From contig NZ_CP093396.1 in the NCBI RefSeq assembly GCF_029027405.1, forward strand, positions 1,364,001 through 1,428,000: 64,000 nt of DNA, written 5' to 3'. A program made the translations under genes and the position numbers. This document shows positions 26,877-40,670 of this stretch, piece after piece (the first letter of the stretch is position 1; every line of letters starts with the position of its first letter). This stretch comes from Sulfurimonas sp. (GTDB lineage: Bacteria > Campylobacterota > Campylobacteria > Campylobacterales > Sulfurimonadaceae). The notes under the pieces were generated by a model. The model did not search any database. It was not told the origin of the DNA and worked only from the letters and a program-made list of their open reading frames with translations.

Positions 26877-27641
26877 ATGGATTTAGGTACGGTAGTTGGT
26901 ATAGTTCTAGTTATGGCTCTTTTACTTGGCGCCATGAGTATGGGTGTTGGGATAGGTGCGTATATTGATATTCCATCTATATTAATTGTTATTGGTGGTT
27001 CTATTGGTGCGTTGATGATTTCTTTTAAACCTGCCCAAATGAAGGGTTTTGTAAAAGTTTTTATGATTGCTATCAAGCCTCCTATAACAGATGAAATAGA
27101 ATTAATAAAAAAACTTGTTGATTTTGCTACAAAAGCAAGAAAAGATGGTATTTTAGCCTTAGAATCAGAAGTAAATTCAGAACCAAATGAATTTTTGAAA
27201 AAAGGTCTTTCTATGGCGATTGATGGCAGTGAACCAGATACGATTCGTGAACTTCTAGAAATTGACATGGAACAAACCAGTACAAGACATAAAATTAATA
27301 GTTCTATTTTTAACAACTGGGCAGGATTAGCAGGAGCTATGGGTATGGTTGGTACACTAATTGGTCTTGTTGCGATGCTTCTAAACATGGCTGATCCATC
27401 AGCGATTGGTCCATCTATGGCTGTTGCTTTGCTTACGACGATGTACGGTGCGATTATTGGTAATGTTTTTGGTACTCCTATTTACAATATATTAACAATT
27501 AGAAATGATGAAGAAACTTTAGTTAAAGAGATGATTTTATCTGGAATCATGTCTATACAATCAGGTGATGCACCAAGGGTTTTAGAAGCAAAACTTCTTA
27601 GTTATTTAGCACCAAAAGACCGTATTAGTCAGTTTGACTAA
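26877..27641 (+). CDS. motA: flagellar stator protein MotA
   Basis: 254 residues, four membrane segments (1-25, 32-52, about 145-170 and 180-205). The cytoplasmic loop between segments 2 and 3 has SMAIDGSEPDTIRELLEIDMEQ, the region touching FliG. Segment 3 has the MVGTLIGLVAMLLNM pattern. With MotB it forms the ion-driven torque unit. Start chosen at the ATG after AAGGT. Followed by motB after 15 nt. Confidence 0.95.
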   Translation: MDLGTVVGIVLVMALLLGAMSMGVGIGAYIDIPSILIVIGGSIGALMISFKPAQMKGFVKVFMIAIKPPITDEIELIKKLVDFATKARKDGILALESEVNSEPNEFLKKGLSMAIDGSEPDTIRELLEIDMEQTSTRHKINSSIFNNWAGLAGAMGMVGTLIGLVAMLLNMADPSAIGPSMAVALLTTMYGAIIGNVFGTPIYNILTIRNDEETLVKEMILSGIMSIQSGDAPRVLEAKLLSYLAPKDRISQFD

Positions 27642-27656
27642 AGATGGAACTGATTA

Positions 27657-28433
27657 ATGGCTAAGAAAAAATGTCCTGATTGTGAAAAGTGTTTACCTGC
27701 GTGGTTAGCTGCGTTTGGGGACTTAATGTCACTGCTTTTATGTTTCTTCGTTCTACTTCTTTCTATGTCTAGCATGGATGCTAAAAAAATCTCAGAAGCT
27801 ATTGGTTCTCTCTCTGGTGCTATGAGTGTTTTAGAAGGTGGAACAAAAACTGAAATATCAAAACAAAGGATGCAACAATCAACTCCAATAGACTCAAATG
27901 ATGAAACAAGTGAAGCAGTAAATAGAGTAGTTCAAGCCGCCATGGATGCTAATGAGATGATAGATAAGGGCAATGGTCCTGCTATTACTGTTGAAGAGGC
28001 TCAGGAAGGTTTTGTTATTGAGTTACCAGCATCTTTACTATTTAAATCAGGAAGTGCAACTATCCAAAATGAGGATGCACTTTTATTTTTAAAAAGGATT
28101 GCTCTAATTGTAGATGAATTACCAAATACAATGCAAGTAAGTGTTCGGGGTCATACTGACAATCAAGGACCTGGTAAAAATAGTGTTTTTAAAGATAATT
28201 GGGAACTTTCCTCTGCAAGAGCAATTTCTGTTCTTCAAGAGCTTCTATTAGATGGAGTTGACCCAAAAAGAATTAGTGCTTCAGGACATGCTGAATTTAA
28301 ACCATTAGCAACAAATGTCACAGAAGCAGGGCGAGCTAAAAACCGTAGAGTCGAGTTGCACTTTTTTGGTGAAAAATCAACCGATAAAGAAAAAGCTAAA
28401 CAATCTGTTTTAGATAAAGTTACCAGTAAATAA
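27657..28433 (+). CDS. motB: flagellar stator protein MotB
   Basis: 258 residues. A short cytoplasmic head with CPDCEKC, one membrane segment with the ion-carrying D22 (AFGDLMSLLLCFFVLLLSMS), a plug/linker, and a C-terminal OmpA domain binding peptidoglycan (VSVRGHTDNQG near 163, NRRVELHFF near 230). The head cysteines are unusual but sit outside the channel. The stop overlaps the fliP start by one base (TAATG). Confidence 0.95.
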   Translation: MAKKKCPDCEKCLPAWLAAFGDLMSLLLCFFVLLLSMSSMDAKKISEAIGSLSGAMSVLEGGTKTEISKQRMQQSTPIDSNDETSEAVNRVVQAAMDANEMIDKGNGPAITVEEAQEGFVIELPASLLFKSGSATIQNEDALLFLKRIALIVDELPNTMQVSVRGHTDNQGPGKNSVFKDNWELSSARAISVLQELLLDGVDPKRISASGHAEFKPLATNVTEAGRAKNRRVELHFFGEKSTDKEKAKQSVLDKVTSK

Positions 28434-29173
28434 TGAGTAAACTTTTTTTCTTTTTTTTCTTTTTCTTTTTTAGTTCTATTCTAGGAGCCGCACCTGTAGA
28501 TATTCCTACTATGAATTTTGCTCTAGGTGCTCCAGATACTCCAGAACAACTAGTAAGTTCTTTAAATGTTTTAATAATTTTAACCTTACTATTTTTAGCT
28601 CCAAGTATGATTTTAGTTATGACAACATTTACTCGTTTTGTCATAGTGTTTGGTTTTTTACGACAAGCTTTAGGTACGCAACAAGTACCACCCACACAAC
28701 TTTTGGTTATGTTGGCAATGATTTTAACTTTTTTTGTTATGGAACCAGTTGGACAAAAAGCTTATGATAATGGAATAAAACCATATATAGAAGAAAAAAT
28801 AGGTTACGAAGAAGCTTTTACTAGATCTGTTCTTCCTTTTAAGAATTTTATGATTAGAAATACTAGAGAAAAAGATTTAGCACTTTTTTTTAGAATTAGA
28901 AAAATGGAAAATCCTGATAGTATAGCTGATGTGCCTCTTTCTGTTATTATTCCTGCTTTTGTTATTAGTGAACTCAAGACTGCTTTTGAGATAGGTTTTT
29001 TAATATTTTTACCATTTTTAGTTATAGATATGGTTGTAGCATCTATACTTATGTCTATGGGTATGATGATGCTTCCTCCTGTTATGATTTCTCTACCATT
29101 TAAGATACTTATTTTTGTTCTTATAGATGGTTGGAATTTGATTATTGGCAATTTAATAGCCACGATAAAATAG
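28433..29173 (+). CDS. fliP: flagellar export apparatus protein FliP
   Basis: 246 residues, core of the flagellar type III export gate. Family blocks are present: PSMILVMTTFTRFVIVFGFLRQALG (about 60-85), VISELKTAFEIGF, and PPVMISLPFKI near the end. The N-terminal signal segment is MSKL followed by nine phenylalanines, coded by T7, T8, T5 and T6 runs at 28443-28471. Gain or loss of one T would shift the frame within ten codons. The start overlaps motB by one base. Confidence 0.95.
   Translation: MSKLFFFFFFFFFSSILGAAPVDIPTMNFALGAPDTPEQLVSSLNVLIILTLLFLAPSMILVMTTFTRFVIVFGFLRQALGTQQVPPTQLLVMLAMILTFFVMEPVGQKAYDNGIKPYIEEKIGYEEAFTRSVLPFKNFMIRNTREKDLALFFRIRKMENPDSIADVPLSVIIPAFVISELKTAFEIGFLIFLPFLVIDMVVASILMSMGMMMLPPVMISLPFKILIFVLIDGWNLIIGNLIATIK
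28443..28471 (+). repeat. interrupted poly-T tract in the fliP start
   Basis: Four T runs of 7, 8, 5 and 6 bases separated by single C bases encode the poly-Phe part of the FliP signal segment. Such runs are prone to replication slippage, so this is a possible on/off switch for motility. Confidence 0.75.
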
Positions 29174-31066: not shown

Positions 31067-31231
31067 TTATTCATAGGTGTTAAATATATTTTTTACTTTC
31101 TTAATGAAGTTAGTTTTTTCTTCAGGTAGAAGTAATTGTCTTGCTTTTCTTCTTCTTCCTAGCCTAAGTTGAAGTTGTTTTCTTATTGATTGTAATTTCA
31201 CGGGACGAAAAAAAACTTCTTTATTTATCAT
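31067..31231 (-). CDS. very short basic protein coupled to the MotB-like gene
   Basis: 54 residues, not recognised. The ATG at 31231 overlaps the stop codon of the MotB/OmpA-like gene in an ATGA arrangement, the same coupling used by real gene pairs throughout the window, and the frame ends exactly where the convergent lipoprotein gene ends. The product is rich in Lys and Arg (LRLGRRRKARQ in the middle), with no signal peptide or membrane segment, so it would stay in the cytoplasm and could bind nucleic acid or acidic partners. Confidence 0.5.
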   Translation of the reverse strand: MINKEVFFRPVKLQSIRKQLQLRLGRRRKARQLLLPEEKTNFIKKVKNIFNTYE

Positions 31232-32394
31232 CTTTTTTTCTCTTTTTTATTTAAGTAATTCATCAATTCCTGTACAGCTTCTTTATTTTTTATACGAAAT
31301 TTTATTTCAATTCTTCGAGAAGCATCTTTGTCTTCTTTATTGTTTTTGTAAAGTATTGGCTCTGCAAAAGAGCGACCACTTGCACTTAGATATTTTTGAA
31401 ATACTTTTGTCTTTTTAGGGTATCGTTTATATAGAAAATGCATAACTGCTAAAGCTCTCTTTTGAGACAAATCAAGATTATATAGATATGAACCATCAGA
31501 ATTAGTGTGACCTTCTATTGTTATTAAATCAATATAACGGCGTATTTTAGCATCACTTAACAGTACATCAATGTAACGACCAAGGACGCGACTAAGTTCT
31601 TTTTTAGCACTAGGTTTAAGTTCTGACTTACCTTGATTAAATAAAATATTTGAACTAAAAGATAAGGCACCAGTTTTAGGGTTTATTTCTATCGAATTTC
31701 CAAGTTTCTTTTTTAGTCTTCTAACTACAGAAATTTTTATACCTGTTAAATTTTTTATTTTTATTTTTGTTATATTTAAATCTTCAACAACTCTTTGGTA
31801 ATCTCTTGATTTGTAAAGTAAAGCTTTTTCAAGTTGAGCTATTTCTTCATCTCTTATTTTTATAAAAGTACTGTCTAATTCATGTCTAATATTTGCATTT
31901 TTTATAAAACTTTTTAGTTGAGAAGATTCTTTGTTTAATATATCTATTTTGAAACCTAGCATATCAGCATCTTCTTCGCTCGCTAGTAGCAACTCTTTTA
32001 GACTTTGCATTTCTCTTTCATTTAGTGATAGTTTTGAGGCTTTTGTTTCTATGCTTGAGTTTAAAAGTGATATATTATCTTTTAGTTCATTAGTTTCACT
32101 CTCAAGTCTACTTATCATAAGGCTTAGTTTTAGGTTCTCCTCTCTTGAAGCACGAAGTTTTTTTACAAGTTCACGAAGTTTGCTCTTTTTGCTAAATAGC
32201 TCTGATTCACTCATCTCTAGAGCACTTTTTTCTTTTTCGAGATTTATTCGTATAGTTTCTAAGTCACTTTGCATAAGTAGAGTTTTAACTACTATGGCTC
32301 CAACAACTAGTATGAAAACAAAAAGAAGACCAGCCATTAAGTCAGCATAAGATACCCAAAAGTTTTGATTTTCATCTTTATTTTGTTTTAGCAT
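31228..32394 (-). CDS. MotB/ZorB-like protein: one membrane segment, long coiled coil, OmpA domain
   Basis: 388 residues. The membrane segment near the start has an ion-channel aspartate, D18, in SYADLMAGLLFVFILVVG. A heptad-rich coiled coil spans about 40-215 and an OmpA/peptidoglycan-binding domain about 250-370 (ITIEGHTNSDGSYLYN, LSQKRALAVMHF, SRRIEIKFRI). That is the plan of stator B subunits including ZorB, but longer because of the coiled coil. It pairs with the MotA/TolQ-like gene 6 nt upstream. It is distinct from the flagellar MotB at 27.7 kb. Confidence 0.8.
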   Translation of the reverse strand: MLKQNKDENQNFWVSYADLMAGLLFVFILVVGAIVVKTLLMQSDLETIRINLEKEKSALEMSESELFSKKSKLRELVKKLRASREENLKLSLMISRLESETNELKDNISLLNSSIETKASKLSLNEREMQSLKELLLASEEDADMLGFKIDILNKESSQLKSFIKNANIRHELDSTFIKIRDEEIAQLEKALLYKSRDYQRVVEDLNITKIKIKNLTGIKISVVRRLKKKLGNSIEINPKTGALSFSSNILFNQGKSELKPSAKKELSRVLGRYIDVLLSDAKIRRYIDLITIEGHTNSDGSYLYNLDLSQKRALAVMHFLYKRYPKKTKVFQKYLSASGRSFAEPILYKNNKEDKDASRRIEIKFRIKNKEAVQELMNYLNKKEKKR

Positions 32395-32400
32395 AAAATT

Positions 32401-33693
32401 TTATTTATCTGATTTTAGTTGAGAAATTTGTGATACTATTGTGGCTGTTTCAGAATCAATCATTTTTAATGCATCTTGTAGTTTATTTAAAAACTTACCA
32501 TCAAAATCATCAATCTTTTTATCAAAAGAGTTACCTATTTCATTTATTTCTTCTTTCATTAAATTTATATTTTTAATGACTCCACTATATAGGTTTTGTA
32601 CATTTTGTACATTTATATTTGAGAGAGCCTCGTTAAGTTTTACACTGTTATCACTTAATACTTCGGCAATCATAACAGCACGAGAAAATTCAGATGAAAG
32701 TGCATTATGCGCTTTGTCTAAAGTGTTATGTTGATTATTTATATTTGATGAAAACTTTTCAAATTTTTCTATTGTTTTGTCAAAAATAGATGCTAAATCT
32801 TTCTGTTGAGATGCAATCATATCAACCCTATTGGCACTTTCTTCTAAAATTTTTGATACTTTAAGAGTGGCTTTTTGTTCTTGGTCTATAATTTGTTCAA
32901 ATATATTCATTCTTTGAACAAGTGCTTTGTTTAAATTTTCAACAAAAGTGCCAGATGCAAAGGTATCAAAAACACTATTTAACTTTTCAAAGTTTTCCAT
33001 ACTTTTTTTGAAGTATGTTTGTTCAATTTCTTCTTTTTGCCAAAAATATTCACTTGTTGCTTCTTTTATAAGATTTGCATCTTTTTGAAAACGACTCATT
33101 CCTGTTTTCTCAAAAAATATCCACCAAATTGATAAAAATATACCATATATAGATACATAAAAAGCTGTGCCAACTCCACCTAAAAGCTTTGAAATTTCTT
33201 CTTCAAGAACCTGTGATGTTTGTGAAGAAAAATCAGGCATGGAAATTGCAATACTAATAAAAGTACCTAAAATACCTAAGGTTGGAAATATACCAGCAGC
33301 GATTGAAGAAAAATTTTCATTTCTCATTTTTTTTGATTCTTGACTTAAAAAATCTTCTAAAGAAGCATTTGCTTTTTCAATTCCAGCAATAAAAAGAAGA
33401 TTTTTGTTTATGAAAACTGATAAGTTGCTTTTAACTTCATCAAAATTTTTTCTAAGTTTACACGAAGCGTAGTAAGCATTGTGTCTTACAAAAAACAGAT
33501 AGATAATAAAAATAGTGCCAATCATTAAAATACTGTGTATTTCAACTCGGAAATTTATAAGCTTTAGATAACCTGCAAGAGCAAAAGCTAAGAGAAAAAT
33601 AGGAATCGACAGTAACCATAAAAACCTAAAAGAACAATCCCGTCCTTTACCTAAAGTTGTTGATAATTTATTAAACTCTTCTATATTTTGCAT
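32401..33693 (-). CDS. MotA/TolQ/ZorA-like inner-membrane protein
   Basis: 430 residues. Two membrane segments near residues 22-45 and 52-70, and two more around 130-150 (GIFPTLGILGTFISIAIS) and 170-195 (GGVGTAFYVSIYGIFLSIWWIFF), the latter typical of MotA/TolQ/ExbB channels. A long cytoplasmic coiled coil follows to the C-terminus, a tail also seen in ZorA proteins. It probably forms an ion-driven unit with the MotB-like partner downstream. It is 0 nt from the exported protein upstream. Confidence 0.78.
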   Translation of the reverse strand: MQNIEEFNKLSTTLGKGRDCSFRFLWLLSIPIFLLAFALAGYLKLINFRVEIHSILMIGTIFIIYLFFVRHNAYYASCKLRKNFDEVKSNLSVFINKNLLFIAGIEKANASLEDFLSQESKKMRNENFSSIAAGIFPTLGILGTFISIAISMPDFSSQTSQVLEEEISKLLGGVGTAFYVSIYGIFLSIWWIFFEKTGMSRFQKDANLIKEATSEYFWQKEEIEQTYFKKSMENFEKLNSVFDTFASGTFVENLNKALVQRMNIFEQIIDQEQKATLKVSKILEESANRVDMIASQQKDLASIFDKTIEKFEKFSSNINNQHNTLDKAHNALSSEFSRAVMIAEVLSDNSVKLNEALSNINVQNVQNLYSGVIKNINLMKEEINEIGNSFDKKIDDFDGKFLNKLQDALKMIDSETATIVSQISQLKSDK

Positions 33694-34719
33694 TTATCTA
33701 AATACCTTATCACAATCTTTTTGAATAGCACCTGGTATAGTGGCAATAGTCATAAACTCCGACATTGAAAGGTTCGGATACATTATTGCTATATAGTATT
33801 TTGGTGCTAATATTTTAGCTACATTATCTTCTATCAAAATAGAATAAGGGAGAAGTTCACTATTTTGATAACCAGTTTTTTTCACAAACTTACTAGTTCT
33901 TCTTGACAGTTTTACACCAATGATTACAGAACCATTATCAAGATGATGTTCATAAATAATTTTTTTTGATTTTCGAGCTTTTTTTAGAAGTGTTTTGTTA
34001 TTGCCCATTGCAACTTTTATCATATCTTGATAATGAGGCATATTTTGCATAAATTGGTATCTGCTTAGTCTTGTGAATTTCACAACATCTTTTGAGTTTT
34101 TTAAATCATTAAAAATGCTGTGTAAATCATCGAGTATTTTTTTAGTTATTTTTTCATCATAATCAGTTTGCATAAATGCTTTATGTATAAACAACGGGTT
34201 TAGTATGCTAATGAGAGAATTCTTTTTATCAATAAGGAGTCTAAGAGATCCAGAGAAACCTCTTTTCTTCGTAGAAGCCATCTTTGTCATGGCATTGTTT
34301 GTAAAAATCATGGCAACATAATTTGCTTTTTTATCAATTTGATATTCACCAAGAATTTTAAAATTAGCATTTTGCAGTTTCTCTATAAGTTCTTTTTGTG
34401 AAATAAGAGCAGTTTGTAGATAAGCACTAACTCGAGAGTTTTTTACATATCCTGATTTAACATTTTTTGTAGATATAACTTCTTCTTGTTTGTAGTAATC
34501 AGGGGGAACTCTTTTACTAGAACCAATAGCATTTGTTTTCTTAACTCTAGTGATTTGCTGAGAGCTTGCAGACACGCTTACAGAAGGAACTCTAATTTTA
34601 ACCTCTGGTACTTTTGGCACATTTATAATAATTATTTTATCTTGAGATGCATATAAATTTGACAAATTTAAAAGAGATAAAAGGGATATGGACAAAACTT
34701 TAATAAAGTTTACTTTCAT
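33694..34719 (-). CDS. exported protein of unknown function, operon partner of the stator-like pair
   Basis: 341 residues with a signal peptide (1-24), a low-complexity Pro/Val/Ser part to about 70, then a folded region of alternating strands and helices (about 105-320). The region EKLQNANFKILGEYQ ... ISILNPLFIHKAFMQ recalls DUF302-type domains, but weakly. No catalytic motif was recognised. It is followed without gap by the MotA/TolQ-like gene, so it is probably the periplasmic partner of that unit. The start has CAGGA upstream. Confidence 0.6.
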   Translation of the reverse strand: MKVNFIKVLSISLLSLLNLSNLYASQDKIIIINVPKVPEVKIRVPSVSVSASSQQITRVKKTNAIGSSKRVPPDYYKQEEVISTKNVKSGYVKNSRVSAYLQTALISQKELIEKLQNANFKILGEYQIDKKANYVAMIFTNNAMTKMASTKKRGFSGSLRLLIDKKNSLISILNPLFIHKAFMQTDYDEKITKKILDDLHSIFNDLKNSKDVVKFTRLSRYQFMQNMPHYQDMIKVAMGNNKTLLKKARKSKKIIYEHHLDNGSVIIGVKLSRRTSKFVKKTGYQNSELLPYSILIEDNVAKILAPKYYIAIMYPNLSMSEFMTIATIPGAIQKDCDKVFR

Positions 34720-34772: not shown

Positions 34773-35723
34773 CTATTTTTTAGAAGCTTTAAATTTTTTG
34801 TACTCCTCATACTCTTTGTCGGTTAAAGAGTGAGTAGCGTCGTTAGCATTTTCAGTAGCACTTACAGTTGATTTACGAGTATCATTTGAGATAGTTTTAG
34901 TAGAATCATTGAAGTTATTTGAAGTAGCTTTCGTAGAGTCATTCAAGTTGTTTGAGGTTGTCTTTGTAGAGTCATTCAAGTTGTTTGAGGTTGTCTTTGT
35001 AGAGTCATTCAAGTTGTTTGAAGTTGTCTTTGTAGAGTCATTCAAGTTGTTTGAAGTTGTCTTCGCAGAGTCATTCAAGTTGTTTGAAGTTGTCTTCGCA
35101 GAGTCATTCAAGTTGTTTGAAGTTGTCTTTGTAGAGTCATTCAAGTTGTTTGAAGTCGTCTTTGTAGAGTCATTCAAGTTGTTTGAAGTCGTCTCTGTTG
35201 AGCTTTTAAGATCACCTGAAATAGTCTTTGTAGAGTCGTTTAAGTTATTAGAAGTAGTCTTTGTTGCATCATTTACATCATGAGAAACTGCTACAGTAGA
35301 GTCTTTAAAGTCTTTTGTAGCCATAGTTGAACTATCTTTAAAGTCACGACTTGTGTTAGAGATACTATCTTTAGAATCTTCTGCCAATTCAATAGTGCTA
35401 TCACGAACATCACGACTAACACTTGTTGTTGAAACTTCTCCACTTTTTACAGTAGCAATTTCACTTGTTTTAAGATCATCAGATGCTTTTACAGCTGTAT
35501 CACGAGCGTCATGTCCAAGAGAAGTAACAGTTCTTTCACCACTCTTACTTACTTCAACTCCACCATCTTTCATTGAATCAGCTGTATCACGAGCATCGTG
35601 ACTCATAGTTGTAGTAGCATCTTTCATATCTTTAAACATATCACCAAAACTAAAATCACCAGCAGTAGCTGTTGAAGCTAATAAACTTAATACTATAGTA
35701 CTCATCACAATTGTTTTTTTCAT
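34773..35723 (-). CDS. exported 11-residue-repeat, LEA-like protein
   Basis: 316 residues. Signal peptide (1-21), then nearly the whole protein follows an 11-residue period: diverged units such as SRDVRDSTIEL first, then eight consecutive units of SNNLNDS[TA]K[TA]T and one SNNFNDSTKTI. Such 11-mers form amphipathic helices in LEA-type proteins, which protect membranes or proteins during drying, cold or salt stress. No Cys, no catalytic motif. Strong ribosome-binding site AAGGGG. Exported, so probably periplasmic. The function is inferred from repeat type only. Confidence 0.7.
   Translation of the reverse strand: MKKTIVMSTIVLSLLASTATAGDFSFGDMFKDMKDATTTMSHDARDTADSMKDGGVEVSKSGERTVTSLGHDARDTAVKASDDLKTSEIATVKSGEVSTTSVSRDVRDSTIELAEDSKDSISNTSRDFKDSSTMATKDFKDSTVAVSHDVNDATKTTSNNLNDSTKTISGDLKSSTETTSNNLNDSTKTTSNNLNDSTKTTSNNLNDSAKTTSNNLNDSAKTTSNNLNDSTKTTSNNLNDSTKTTSNNLNDSTKTTSNNLNDSTKATSNNFNDSTKTISNDTRKSTVSATENANDATHSLTDKEYEEYKKFKASKK
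34900..35210 (-). repeat. 33-bp tandem repeat array
   Basis: About nine units of a 33-bp sequence containing TAGAGTCATTCAAGTTGTTT follow one another with only a few substitutions (Thr/Ala codons, third bases). Because 33 is a multiple of 3, unit gain or loss keeps the frame. Boundaries are approximate. Confidence 0.85.
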
Positions 35724-36109: not shown

Positions 36110-36517
36110 GTGAAAAATATATTAACAACCTTATTGTTAAGTACAGCACTTTTTTCGAGTGTATATACAAAGCAAGACAGAATCAAAGATATGCAAGTTA
36201 TGGCAGAAGCAATGACAACAATTGAAACTGGTTTTTTTTATAACAATAACGATATAGTGCAAAATGGTGCTTTATCTCTCTCAGATGCTATAAGAAGAAT
36301 TAAGCCACCATTGGAAGTTAAAGAAGAAAAAGACCCAATGGCTAGATACATGAATAATAAAGTAGTTTTTAGTAATAAAATAGTAAAGACTATCGATAAA
36401 AAAGCTAAGATAATTATAGAAAGATTTGCTGTTGGTGATGTTCAAGCCGCAACGCAAGCATATACAAAAATAATGAAGCAATGTATGAGATGTCATCACG
36501 AAATTCGTCAATGGTGA
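36110..36517 (+). CDS. small periplasmic c-type cytochrome, C-terminal heme site
   Basis: 135 residues with GTG start after AAAGGG. Signal peptide (1-20), a helical body, and one CxxCH (CMRCH, residues 125-129) ten residues before the end. A C-terminal heme motif on a helical domain is the plan of cytochrome c'/c-556-like proteins. It precedes the membrane-fusion protein of an RND pump by 4 nt, which suggests co-expression; whether it passes electrons or senses a small molecule is unknown. Confidence 0.75.
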   Translation: MKNILTTLLLSTALFSSVYTKQDRIKDMQVMAEAMTTIETGFFYNNNDIVQNGALSLSDAIRRIKPPLEVKEEKDPMARYMNNKVVFSNKIVKTIDKKAKIIIERFAVGDVQAATQAYTKIMKQCMRCHHEIRQW

Positions 36518-36521
36518 TGTA

Positions 36522-37334
36522 TTGAAAAATATTTTTTTAATATCAATTATTTTATTTAGTGTGAATATTTTAGCTTTTGAATTGCCAATAACAGGAACTG
36601 TAGTCTCGTATAACCAAAAAATGGTTGGAGCAAGATATATGGGTTATATCAAAAACATATATTTTGATATTGGAGACAGGGTAGAAAGAGAGGACACTCT
36701 TTTTGAAATGGAATCTGCTGAGTTTGATATTTTAAAATCTCAAGCAGATTTAGCTCTAGAACAAGCGAATTCCATTGTGAATATGTATAAAACTCGTATG
36801 GATTCTATTAATAGAGAGCGAAAAGCTTTAAAAAAACAAGGTATGTTTAATCCTGAAGATATGCAGAACCTTGATATTACAGCAAATAATGTTTCAGCAG
36901 GACTTGCATCTGCTCAAGTTCTTGTTAAAAATGCTGCTTCAAAACTAAAACAAGTTGCAACTATAACAGGTTACCTCGAGATTAAAGCACCAAATAGTGG
37001 AATAATAGTTGAAAAAAGAATTCGTGTTGGAGATTTAGTAGCTCCTGGTATGCTTGGTATGATTATTGTAGATTTAGAGCATCTACAGATTGAGGGTGAA
37101 GTTGCAGAATCAGATTTAAAATATGTAAATAAATATCAAAAAGTAAAAATAGAAATCCCATCTATTAGTTATAGGGATACAGGTTACATTAAATCAGTAG
37201 TTCCAAGTGCAAATCCTATGGCGCACACATTTAAAATAATTATTAACTTTAAAAAAAAGAGTAATAAAATATTTCCTGGAATGTATGCGAAAATTCTCAT
37301 TAAAATAGATGAAAAATATTATACAAGAGATTAA
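36522..37334 (+). CDS. RND efflux membrane-fusion protein (periplasmic adaptor)
   Basis: 270 residues from a TTG start. Signal peptide (1-18), lipoyl-like halves (GTVVSYNQKMVGARYMGYI near 24 and IKAPNSGIIVEKRIRVGDLV near 155), an alpha-helical hairpin between them (about 70-140), and a beta-barrel after it. Shorter than the usual 350-400 residues, because the C-terminal membrane-proximal domain is reduced. It would link the split RND permease downstream to an outer-membrane channel, which is not coded here. Confidence 0.85.
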   Translation: MKNIFLISIILFSVNILAFELPITGTVVSYNQKMVGARYMGYIKNIYFDIGDRVEREDTLFEMESAEFDILKSQADLALEQANSIVNMYKTRMDSINRERKALKKQGMFNPEDMQNLDITANNVSAGLASAQVLVKNAASKLKQVATITGYLEIKAPNSGIIVEKRIRVGDLVAPGMLGMIIVDLEHLQIEGEVAESDLKYVNKYQKVKIEIPSISYRDTGYIKSVVPSANPMAHTFKIIINFKKKSNKIFPGMYAKILIKIDEKYYTRD

Positions 37335-37338
37335 GTAA

Positions 37339-38916
37339 GTGTCTGAGGATTATAAAAGCAAAAATATAGCAGGACACTTAGCCGAAGCATTTTTGAATAA
37401 TCCGCTAACTATGCTGTTTGCAATTTCGATTATCCTTCTTGGATATATCACCTTAAATATTGCACCAAGAGAAGAGGATCCACAAATAGAAGTAAGCGGT
37501 GGTTCAATTATTATTATGATACCAGGAGCATCTCCAAAAGCTATAACGAATGTTGTTGTAAAACCACTTGAGAGAAGGATACGAGAGATTAAAGGGGTAG
37601 AGCATATTTATGGCACTGCCATGAATAATGTCGGTATGATAAATGTACAATATTTCATAGGCGAAGATAGAGAATCCTCAAATTTAAAGCTGTATGATAA
37701 AGTAATGCAAAATATGGATACTTTACCAAAAGGCATAGGAATGCCATTGGTAAAACCTTTTGATATAGATATTGATATTCCTGTTATTACTGTTGCTTTT
37801 TATCAAAAAGACGCATCTAAACCAAGCACTTTAAAACAATATCATACAGTAAGAGAAATTCAACAAGAGATAAATGCACTAAACAATGTATCTAAAAGTA
37901 CTCTAAAGGGTATGCATAAACCACAGTTTAATATACAAGTAGATATAGATAAGTTATCTTCTTATCATCTTTCTTTAGGTCAAATAGCAAGTTCTGTAAA
38001 AGCTATTGCAACAAATGCACCAAATATCAATGCTCCTACAAGTAGTAATTCTATAATTGTTTTTGGTGTTAAAAATGCAATAGAAGATATAGATGATTTG
38101 AAAGATTTAATAATTGCACAATACATGGGTTCCCCAATTTATCTTAAAAATGTTGCAAAGATTGAGTATGGTTATGATGTACAACATTTTCAAAATTCTC
38201 TTATTGCACAAAGAGATAACAACTCTTCTTTTGATAGTCCAGTTCAACAAGTTACATTAACTGTATCAAAGTTAAAAGGTACAAATGCTGTTTATGTTGC
38301 CCAAGATGTTATAGATTTACTAGATGAAAGAAGTGAGTTTTTCAATCAAGAAGGCATAGGTTATATTATTACTAGAAACTATGGAGAAAGAGCAAATGAA
38401 GCTGTTGGTGAACTTATGCATCATCTTGTAATTACTATTGGAATTATTGGTCTTATTCTTATTCCTTTTCTTGGATGGAGAGAGTCTTTAGTTGTATCTA
38501 TTGCAGTTCCTATGATTTTAGCCGCAACACTTTTTATAGCTTATATGACAGATCAAACTATAAATAGAATTACACTTTTCGCATTTTTACTTAGTCTAGG
38601 GCTTATTGTAGATGATGCAATTATTGTTATTGAAAACATACATAGAAGAATGCATCTAAAAGAAACACAAGATCATAGTTTTGATCGCATCATCGTTGAA
38701 GCAACAGATGAAATAGGACCATCTACAAACATCGCTACAATAGCAATCATTTTGACGATGGTTCCTATGGGGTTTGTAGGTGGAATGATGGGTCAGTTTA
38801 TGAAACCTATACCATTAAATGTTCCAGTTGCTTTAGCAGTTTCACTTTTTGTAGCTTATGTGTTTACTCCATTTTTAGCAAAGAAGATGATTAAACGCGC
38901 GAAAGGAACGCATTAA
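37339..38916 (+). CDS. RND transporter permease, N-terminal half protein
   Basis: 525 residues from GTG. One membrane segment (about 18-37), a large periplasmic porter region, then five segments (about 355-520). The fourth membrane segment has LGLIVDDAIIVIEN, the two Asp of the proton relay. The protein ends in FLAKKMIKRAKGTH after segment 6, exactly the middle of a normal 1000-1050 residue RND permease. The stop codon overlaps the next start by one base (TAATG), so both halves are made together. COG0841-like; substrate unknown. Confidence 0.87.
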   Translation: MSEDYKSKNIAGHLAEAFLNNPLTMLFAISIILLGYITLNIAPREEDPQIEVSGGSIIIMIPGASPKAITNVVVKPLERRIREIKGVEHIYGTAMNNVGMINVQYFIGEDRESSNLKLYDKVMQNMDTLPKGIGMPLVKPFDIDIDIPVITVAFYQKDASKPSTLKQYHTVREIQQEINALNNVSKSTLKGMHKPQFNIQVDIDKLSSYHLSLGQIASSVKAIATNAPNINAPTSSNSIIVFGVKNAIEDIDDLKDLIIAQYMGSPIYLKNVAKIEYGYDVQHFQNSLIAQRDNNSSFDSPVQQVTLTVSKLKGTNAVYVAQDVIDLLDERSEFFNQEGIGYIITRNYGERANEAVGELMHHLVITIGIIGLILIPFLGWRESLVVSIAVPMILAATLFIAYMTDQTINRITLFAFLLSLGLIVDDAIIVIENIHRRMHLKETQDHSFDRIIVEATDEIGPSTNIATIAIILTMVPMGFVGGMMGQFMKPIPLNVPVALAVSLFVAYVFTPFLAKKMIKRAKGTH

Positions 38917-40670
38917 TGGAAGAACTTATTTATGGCATCATAGGTTCAAAAGCTAAAAGAAAAAAAGTGATTTTATATATAGTATTGGCTTTTTTATTTT
39001 CTATAATGCTCATTCCTACAAAGTTGGTCTTGGCAAAAATGCTACCTGGGAAAAGTGCAAATACCTTTAGCATCTATGTTGATACAGCAACAAATAGCTC
39101 CTTAGAAGAAACTAGAGCTGTAGCAAACTGTGTTTTAGGGTATTTAAAAAAAGAAGAAGCTGTAAAAAATGTTGAAGTATATTTAGCTCAAGGTGCACCA
39201 CTTGATTATGCAGGATTGGTTAAAGGTAGTGCTTTAAAAAGAATGAAAAATCAGGCTGAAATGGTTGTAAACCTTAGTGATAAAAATTCTCGTGATGAAG
39301 CATCATATAAAATGGTGCATAGAATTCGTCCTATAATACAAAAAGCTTGCCAAACTTTAACTAATTATAGAACCGTAAAATTTGTAGAGATGCCATCAGG
39401 TCCACCAACTTTTGCAACTTTAGAGATTAATATTTTTGGTAAAGATGATAACTTGATGCGTAGGACTGCTGAGCGAGTAGCTATGATATTAGGTAAAACT
39501 GATGGTTTAGTTGATATAGATGTTATGCAAGATGACATATATCCATATTTTGAAATCATTCCAGATAAAGAAAAAATTATAAAAAGTGGTCTTAGTGTTG
39601 ATCAGGTAAATAATATTTTATATATTGCTTTTGAGGGCATGGTTGTTGCTGTTAAAAACTCTAAAAAACAACAAGATCAAATTCCGATTTTTGTTCGTCT
39701 TGATGATAAAAGTAGAGAGATAAGGTCAAATTCCAAATCAGCGATATACTTTAAACTGTCAAGATTAAAACTATTAAATCAAAGAGGCATGATGATACCC
39801 ATAAGAGAGGTTATAAGTGTAAATGAGATTCCATCAAGTCCAACTATTTTTAGAAAAAATTTACAAAATTTTGTAAGCATTAGTGCAGAATGTGATTTAG
39901 TTTCTCAGCTATACCCACTTTTAGAAGCTAGGGATACTATAATAGAGAAACTATCGGATGATTTTAATGTTACAAAAGTAGACGGAATGTCAACTTACAT
40001 GTTTGACTTAAATTTAGTAGAAAAAAATTCAGGTAAAAAATTGTTGCTTAGATGGGATGGAGAGATGAAAGTTTCTCTTGATACCTTTCGTGACTTAGGT
40101 GGTGCTTTTATAGCAGCTCTTATTTTAATGTTCTTACTTATGGTAATGTATTACAAGTCATTTGCCTTGAGTGGTATTATTTTATTAGCAAGTTTTTTGT
40201 CTATCATTGGAGTAATTACAGGGCATTTTATTACAGATATGATTTCACTTTTTTTTGCGGACATCAACTTTTTTTTAACAGCCACTTCACTCATTGGTTT
40301 TATCTCTTTAATGGGAATTAGTGCTAGAAGTTCATTGTTACTAATAGATTTTTCTATGGCACTTATAGAAAAAGGTGTAGAGAAAAAAAGAGCTATTGCT
40401 ATCTCAACAGCAACAAGAGCGAAGCCTATTGTTATGACAGCGGTTGCAATTATTTTAGGTTCATTGTTGCTCTCAACTGACCCTATTTTTGGTGGATTAG
40501 GTGTTGCTTTGATTTTTGGCTCTATCGCTTCTACTGTGGTGTCTTTGTTCCTTGTTCCTGTTCTCATAGTAAATACTGTGGCGATTTGTCCCAAAGGAAT
40601 GGATCATAGACATCATGAATGTCATGGAGGGATTGATAAACATGTGGACCCTGAAGAGATGGGGTTATAA
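38916..40670 (+). CDS. RND transporter permease, C-terminal half protein
   Basis: 584 residues. Corresponds to membrane segments 7-12: one segment (about 15-37), a periplasmic porter domain, then five segments (about 390-565) with GISARSSLLLIDF in the segment equivalent to TM10. The C-terminus is His-rich (HRHHECHGG), which may bind metal. Taken with the previous gene it makes a full-length pump of about 1109 residues, so two chains probably assemble as a heterodimer repeated three times. Confidence 0.87.
   Translation: MEELIYGIIGSKAKRKKVILYIVLAFLFSIMLIPTKLVLAKMLPGKSANTFSIYVDTATNSSLEETRAVANCVLGYLKKEEAVKNVEVYLAQGAPLDYAGLVKGSALKRMKNQAEMVVNLSDKNSRDEASYKMVHRIRPIIQKACQTLTNYRTVKFVEMPSGPPTFATLEINIFGKDDNLMRRTAERVAMILGKTDGLVDIDVMQDDIYPYFEIIPDKEKIIKSGLSVDQVNNILYIAFEGMVVAVKNSKKQQDQIPIFVRLDDKSREIRSNSKSAIYFKLSRLKLLNQRGMMIPIREVISVNEIPSSPTIFRKNLQNFVSISAECDLVSQLYPLLEARDTIIEKLSDDFNVTKVDGMSTYMFDLNLVEKNSGKKLLLRWDGEMKVSLDTFRDLGGAFIAALILMFLLMVMYYKSFALSGIILLASFLSIIGVITGHFITDMISLFFADINFFLTATSLIGFISLMGISARSSLLLIDFSMALIEKGVEKKRAIAISTATRAKPIVMTAVAIILGSLLLSTDPIFGGLGVALIFGSIASTVVSLFLVPVLIVNTVAICPKGMDHRHHECHGGIDKHVDPEEMGL

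What the first reader, a model, noticed from the sequence alone, without database searches (positions are those of the whole stretch)
31067..34719. Stand-alone stator-like ion-driven system with an exported partner, recalling ZorA/ZorB
A MotA/TolQ-like protein with a long cytoplasmic coiled-coil tail and a MotB/OmpA-like protein with a coiled coil form a pair separate from the flagellar motA/motB at 27 kb. The plan resembles the membrane engine of Zorya phage defence, but the ZorC/ZorD/ZorE effectors are absent. Instead there are an exported protein with no known family and a 54-residue basic ORF at the end. It could be an envelope-tension or defence machine with new effectors.
Basis: partly seen in the sequence, partly recalled or inferred. 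Interest (0 to 1): 0.6.

Follow-up and report, generated by a model that had tools for sequence, protein, structure and literature searches.

The report
ZorAB-like envelope motor without defence genes
Two neighbouring genes encode an ion-driven membrane motor of the kind known from the Zorya phage-defence system, but it forms its own family, carried by nearly all Campylobacter relatives and many other Campylobacterota without any defence genes, so it is probably a general cell-envelope machine of unknown duty.

Summary
In detail: window 31228-33693 (- strand) encodes a MotA/TolQ-like protein with a long cytoplasmic coiled coil and a MotB/OmpA-like protein with a long periplasmic coiled coil, separate from flagellar motAB. 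Profiles and predicted fold place the pair nearest ZorA/ZorB, above ExbB/TolQ and MotA. It is not a Zorya system: ZorC, ZorD and ZorE are absent from the genome; 20 Campylobacterota pairs form one clade (99/99) outside Zorya I and II; and two Campylobacter-family genomes carry both this pair and a separate true Zorya II. The pair is in 142 of 298 Campylobacterota genomes and 91 of 100 Campylobacteraceae, there at a fixed site after peb4-fba (Cj0598/Cj0599 by synteny). Its B protein carries 100-185 more periplasmic residues than ZorB. The exported 341-aa protein is probably not a dedicated partner: its C-terminus folds like DUF302, and its relatives mostly lie away from the pair, several beside a hendecad-repeat protein and a split RND pump. 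In the window's genus, however, the pair and one class of that pump lie next to each other (15 of 15 same-contig cases within 7 kb). Best reading: a non-defence, peptidoglycan-anchored, ion-driven envelope motor of a new ZorAB-like subfamily, duty unknown.

The parts
32401..33693 (-). A subunit (430 aa): four predicted TM helices (about 25-43, 50-68, 128-146, 176-194), beta hairpin 99-108, then a cytoplasmic helical tail from about residue 196 to 428
   Evidence: ORF; MotA_ExbB PF01618 36.8 bits; ZorA profiles up to 60 bits; hydropathy; AF2 pLDDT 78; best folds are Zorya ZorA
31228..32394 (-). B subunit (388 aa): one TM helix with conserved Asp18 (SYADLMAG), periplasmic coiled coil of about 200 residues, C-terminal OmpA-like peptidoglycan-binding domain (251-358)
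   Evidence: OmpA PF00691 48.4 bits; ZorB PDLC00609 195 bits; alignment A2; spacing count
33694..34719 (-). exported 341-aa protein; C-terminal domain (229-341) with DUF302-like fold; accessory gene of a repeat-protein/RND neighbourhood, joined to the pair only in a few Sulfurimonas-like genomes
   Evidence: alignment; distribution and context; (1q9u Z 8.2, 1j3m Z 8.1)
31067..31231 (-). 54-aa basic protein (net charge +11), translationally coupled to the B gene
   Evidence: conserved in L011 and L016 with coupled starts; 63% hit in L166
34773..35723 (-). exported 316-aa protein with 11-residue (33-bp) repeats, first gene of the run; also found beside the RND pump in loci without the pair
   Evidence: TRF array 34900-35264, 11 copies
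36110..36517 (+). cytochrome c'-like 135-aa exported protein, divergent from the run
   Evidence: Pfam Cytochrom_C_2 18.1 bits, below cut-off; CxxCH motif in sequence
36522..37334 (+). RND periplasmic adaptor (HlyD/MFP family)
   Evidence: TIGR01730 87.6 bits, just under cut-off
37339..38916 (+). first half of a split RND transporter ('class I')
   Evidence: ACR_tran 245.7 bits, model 5-494; linkage to the pair
38916..40670 (+). second half of the split RND transporter
   Evidence: ACR_tran 140.5 bits, model 526-1017

Best explanation
The pair is a peptidoglycan-anchored, ion-driven inner-membrane motor of the 5A:2B class, in a ZorAB-like subfamily of its own that serves the cell envelope and is not a phage-defence system. 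Inferred working: five A subunits ring two B transmembrane helices; ions pass Asp18 of B against the Thr144/Ser181 ring of A once the B OmpA domains, at the end of a periplasmic coiled coil of up to about 200 residues, grip peptidoglycan far from the inner membrane. The ring then turns or shifts around B and moves the bundled cytoplasmic tail of A, passing an envelope-gap or load signal (or force) to an unknown partner. In the window's genus it is built into an envelope module with a split RND pump and exported accessories. Shown by computation: homology, fold class, residue conservation, distribution, absence of effectors, gene linkage. Inferred: 5:2 assembly, ion flow, peptidoglycan grip, direction of signalling, envelope duty.
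For: Best sequence matches in PDB are Zorya ZorA and ZorB; the predicted A fold matches Zorya ZorA first (E 6e-6; ExbB 2e-2) and the six Zorya entries head the list at Z 10.2-10.8 (ExbB/TolQ follow at 9.3). B Asp18 and A T144/S181 align with the ion path, and H296, L309, R313 are spaced exactly like ZorB H186, L199, R203, which bind peptidoglycan (PMC11890865). The pair is in 142/298 phylum genomes and 91/100 Campylobacteraceae, in the latter at one syntenic site between peb4-fba and an ACC-deaminase-like gene in the genera read; in other families its neighbours are unrelated housekeeping genes. One clade apart from Zorya, 99/99. Two genomes have both the pair and true Zorya II. Sulfurimonas: pair and class I RND co-occur 18/6/15/75, Fisher p 1.3e-7, 15 of 15 same-contig cases within 7 kb.
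Against: No experiment shows any function. In the window's own genus the pair is patchy (33/114), as defence genes are. At least one Campylobacter-family lineage has lost the Asp and the RR motif of B (L079), so the ion-driven step is dispensable there. The class I RND association is within one genus and the genomes are related, so the Fisher value overstates independence; 15 of 33 pair genomes lack that RND. Stoichiometry and stalk extension are not modelled.
Confidence: 0.6

Rival explanations
1. A stand-alone anti-phage machine: the pair senses phage-induced envelope damage as ZorAB does and acts through effectors not recognised so far (the 54-aa protein, the exported protein, or genes elsewhere).
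For: Nearest characterised homologues are ZorA/ZorB; patchy in Sulfurimonas; PADLOC ZorB1 model PDLC00609 scores 195 bits, not far below the 244 bits it gives a ZorB-like protein next to a helicase on a Nostoc plasmid.
Against: Near-universal and syntenic in Campylobacteraceae, unlike defence genes; no ZorC/ZorD/ZorE; no common effector-like neighbour in any lineage; proposed effectors absent beside nearly all relatives.
Confidence: 0.15
2. The motor directly energises or gates the split RND transporter and its adaptor, with the exported repeat and DUF302-like proteins as periplasmic parts of one exporter.
For: Pair next to class I RND in 15 of 15 same-contig Sulfurimonas cases, with two different A/B subfamilies and two gene orders; two of the six RND-only genomes break at the contig end where the pair would lie.
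Against: Outside Sulfurimonas the pair mostly lies far from any such RND; the Campylobacteraceae genomes listed have the pair but no close RND of this kind; RND pumps are ion-driven by themselves.
Confidence: 0.15
3. A second flagellar stator that helps turn the flagellum.
For: Lies near motAB-fliP in the window lineage.
Against: Pair with intact Asp occurs in genomes where no MotA match was found (G222, G026, G264, G058, Asp); A has a long C-terminal tail and only about 57 residues between TM2 and TM3; fold nearer ZorA than MotA.
Confidence: 0.03
4. An ExbBD/TolQR-type energiser for outer-membrane transport or Tol-Pal.
For: Same superfamily, Z 9.3 to TolQ/ExbB.
Against: B has an OmpA domain and a long coiled coil, which ExbD/TolR lack; the genome has its own ExbB and TolQ loci; ZorA matches are better.
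Confidence: 0.05

Closest known systems
Zorya types I and II, ZorA/ZorB (PDB 8qyd, 8vvn, 8vvi)
   Same: A fold with cytoplasmic helical tail, B TM Asp, Ser/Thr ring, OmpA-type peptidoglycan-binding domain with the same key residues
   Different: separate clade; no ZorC/D/E; B has 100-185 more residues between Asp and OmpA motif (216-300 against 107-120); an extra N-terminal TM in A; conserved syntenic distribution
Campylobacter Cj0598/Cj0599 (gene numbers from my own knowledge of NCTC 11168; locus by synteny nth-peb4-fba)
   Same: same family, same clade
   Different: no exported protein, repeat protein or 54-aa gene beside it; B stalk shorter (320 aa in L077)
Flagellar MotAB
   Same: superfamily, OmpA-type B
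   Different: A tail, small TM2-TM3 loop, co-occurrence independent of MotA
ExbBD / TolQR
   Same: superfamily of the A subunit
   Different: B subunit architecture; sequence and fold further away
DUF302 (PF03625; 1q9u, 1j3m), for the exported protein
   Same: C-terminal domain aligns at Z 8.1-8.2 over about 105 residues; a paralogue elsewhere in the genome sits next to a PF03625 protein
   Different: no Pfam match of the protein itself; model confidence low

Membership tests
Zorya defence system | ZorA/ZorB homologues with TM Asp and Ser/Thr ring | tested here: met
   B D18, A T144 and S181 conserved
Zorya defence system | effector genes ZorC+ZorD (type I) or ZorE (type II) beside ZorAB | tested here: not met
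   ZorC; ZorD, with positive control G125; ZorE; neighbours
Zorya defence system | type III effectors ZorF/ZorG | not tested
   no query for them was run; no such gene recognised next to the pair
Zorya defence system | reaches curated ZorA/ZorB equivalog cut-offs | tested here: not met
   ZorB1 75 of 400 bits, ZorA 38 of 500; but true Campylobacterota Zorya II also fall short, so this test is weak
Zorya defence system | groups within the Zorya ZorAB clades | tested here: not met
   20 pairs one clade 99/99, Zorya II 100/99 and Zorya I outside; deep order unresolved
Zorya defence system | anti-phage activity | not testable with these tools
   needs phage challenge
ExbBD/TolQR | B subunit ExbD/TolR-like without OmpA domain | tested here: not met
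   OmpA domain in B
Flagellar MotAB stator | occurs with, and depends on, a flagellum | tested here: not met
   pair present in four genomes without a MotA match
5:2 ion-driven motors (superfamily) | A5B2 assembly and ion conduction | not testable with these tools
   inferred from homology; no complex was modelled
DUF302 (exported 341-aa protein) | DUF302 fold | tested here: inconclusive
   Z 8.2 to 1q9u over residues 229-341, but mean pLDDT 51 and no Pfam match

The most novel reading that the evidence does not exclude
A phylum-wide, non-defence relative of ZorAB in which a long periplasmic stalk places the peptidoglycan-binding domains near the outer membrane, and which in Sulfurimonas is mechanically coupled to a split RND exporter with hendecad-repeat and DUF302-like periplasmic parts: a stator-driven export or envelope-lipid machine of a kind not described.
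Probability: 0.15. Interest if true: 0.8.

Novelty: new variant of a known kind. Interest (0 to 1): 0.5.

Why it matters
It shows that ZorAB-type motors exist as conserved genes outside defence, including in most Campylobacter relatives, where Cj0598 is listed only as 'hypothetical, function unknown' (PMC5841378). That gives a test of what such a motor does without its nuclease effectors, and a comparison point for how Zorya senses the envelope. Defence annotation that scores ZorB alone would mislabel it: the PADLOC ZorB1 model gives it 195 bits.

Tried and rejected
Flagellar auxiliary stator: rejected because the pair occurs without MotA. ExbBD/TolQR: rejected by B architecture and by separate ExbB and TolQ loci. 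Degenerate Zorya remnant: rejected because the pair forms its own clade and co-exists with true Zorya II. Exported protein as dedicated partner: tested by phylum search; 31/298 genomes, linked to the pair only in the window's own genome in that sample. Searches of the exported protein against PDB sequences, plasmids and PHROGs gave nothing. Foldseek on the poor model of the exported protein gave only weak, unrelated hits before VIA-align brought up DUF302. NCBIfam equivalog cut-offs proved too strict to separate true Campylobacterota Zorya II from this family. Promoter and terminator scans were at chance level. The Nature 2024 Zorya structure paper is not held.

Full report
OBSERVATION. The window is G000:C1:1364001-1428000, a 2.83-Mb single-contig genome whose relatives are Sulfurimonas and other Campylobacterota. 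On the minus strand a tight run of five genes reads 316-aa repeat protein, 341-aa exported protein, A (430 aa), B (388 aa), 54-aa protein; gaps are 53, 0, 6 and -4 nt. A is MotA/TolQ/ExbB-like (PF01618, 36.8 bits) and B carries an OmpA domain (PF00691, 48.4 bits). Flagellar motAB are separate at 26877-28433.

WHAT THE PAIR RESEMBLES. PADLOC ranks ZorB1 and ZorA1 models first (195 and 60 bits). For comparison, the Zorya ZorB proteins scanned get 232-353 bits and the ZorA proteins 238-1355 bits from their best models. In PDB sequences the family profiles hit ZorB (8qyd, E 2e-23) and ZorA (8vvn, E 7e-9) first. The AlphaFold model of A (pLDDT 78) matches Zorya ZorA best (E 6e-6; ExbB 2e-2). VIA-align lists the six Zorya entries at Z 10.2-10.8, then ExbB/TolQ at 9.3, MotA at 7.2. 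Z values this close would not decide alone, but sequence and Foldseek agree.

HOW IT DIFFERS. A tree of concatenated A+B puts 20 Campylobacterota pairs in one clade (99/99), outside five Zorya II systems, four Zorya I-like systems and MotAB; the deep order is unresolved. The distance from the B TM Asp motif to the GHT motif is 216-300 residues, against 107-120 in Zorya, so B carries a much longer periplasmic coiled coil. A shows four hydrophobic helices, and most Zorya ZorA structures align from about residue 47 on, leaving one extra N-terminal helix. ZorC (0 in this genome, 1 of 298 in the phylum above cut-off), ZorE and ZorD (positive control G125) are absent. Genomes G093 and G132 carry both the pair and a separate ZorA2-ZorB2-ZorE locus; in G093 the ZorE match shows internal stops in the tool's alignment, although an open frame of 271 aa is present at that place.

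DISTRIBUTION. The B profile is found in 142 of 298 phylum genomes and 91 of 100 Campylobacteraceae. In the Campylobacteraceae loci read the site is fixed: nth | peb4 - fba - A - B, then mostly an ACC-deaminase-like gene and a hisD-like gene. By my knowledge of C. jejuni gene numbers this is Cj0598/Cj0599; Cj0598 is listed as hypothetical with unknown function in PMC5841378. Elsewhere neighbours change from lineage to lineage, so only the pair itself is conserved. Four genomes have the pair without a MotA match.

THE EXPORTED PROTEIN AND THE 54-AA ORF. Relatives of the 341-aa protein occur in 31 of 298 genomes. Where the context was read, several sit directly after a repeat protein like 34773-35723 and beside RND, adaptor or cytochrome-like genes, with no pair nearby (L100, L101, L102, L104, L106). 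In the own genome a paralogue is next to a DUF302 (PF03625) protein. The model of the 341-aa protein is poor (pLDDT 51), but its C-terminal domain aligns best with the two solved DUF302 structures (Z 8.2 and 8.1). The 54-aa ORF is a real coupled gene in the window lineage and in L011/L016, with a further hit in L166; it was not seen in the other loci read.

LINK TO THE SPLIT RND PUMP. In the window the pair's operon diverges from cytochrome-like, adaptor and two RND halves (36110-40670). Across 114 genomes of the genus, a close form of that RND ('class I', at least 68% identical) is present with the pair in 18, without it in 6; the pair lacks it in 15; neither in 75 (Fisher p 1.3e-7). In all 15 cases on one contig they lie within 7 kb. 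There are two A/B subfamilies (about 34-40% identical) and two gene orders. Two of the six RND-only genomes end their contig where the pair would be (G406, G369). The genomes are related, so the p-value is not a test of independent events. Outside the genus the association is absent or weak (about 10 kb in G264 and G221, with other genes between).

MECHANISM. By homology to Zorya (PMC11890865: Asp, peptidoglycan-binding residues and tail all needed there) the pair should form an A5B2 ion-driven motor anchored in peptidoglycan; the residues are conserved. A 200-residue parallel coiled coil would reach up to about 30 nm if straight, so the OmpA domains may grip peptidoglycan close to the outer membrane (inference). 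What the tail drives is unknown. The near-universal, syntenic distribution in Campylobacteraceae argues for an envelope duty and against defence.

LIMITS. No function was tested. Assembly, ion flow and direction of signalling are inferred. Tree placement relative to Zorya I is unresolved. Zorya III effectors were not searched for.

Noticed in passing
L079 5646-6620 (G012; low-scoring relatives G017, G024, G220, G230 in the same genus were not read): The B protein of L079 has lost the ion-binding Asp (SFAGLM for SYADLM) and the RR motif although A is kept and MotA is present; possible loss of motor function in a Campylobacter-family lineage.
   Followed up: partly
window 37339-40670: An RND transporter encoded as two half genes (525 + 584 aa), a split form seen in most Campylobacterota hits but in a long frame (about 1150 aa) in family f5.
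   Followed up: partly
window 34900-35264: 33-bp tandem repeat, 11 copies, inside the 316-aa repeat protein; protein length differs between relatives.
   Followed up: no
L127-L131, L132: Zorya II (ZorA2-ZorB2-ZorE) and one Zorya I (ZorA-B-C-D) loci in Campylobacterota genomes, those scanned falling below NCBIfam equivalog cut-offs.
   Followed up: partly
L101 4132-6258, L100 5577-8699: Relatives of the exported 341-aa protein form the C-terminus of 700-1040-aa proteins in another family of the phylum.
   Followed up: partly
window 28441-28471: fliP begins with MSKLFFFFFFFFFF: T-rich interrupted tract at the gene's 5' end.
   Followed up: no
L114 5434-7492: A Paracoccus plasmid carries another OmpA-containing A/B-like pair without Zorya effectors, very divergent.
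   Followed up: no
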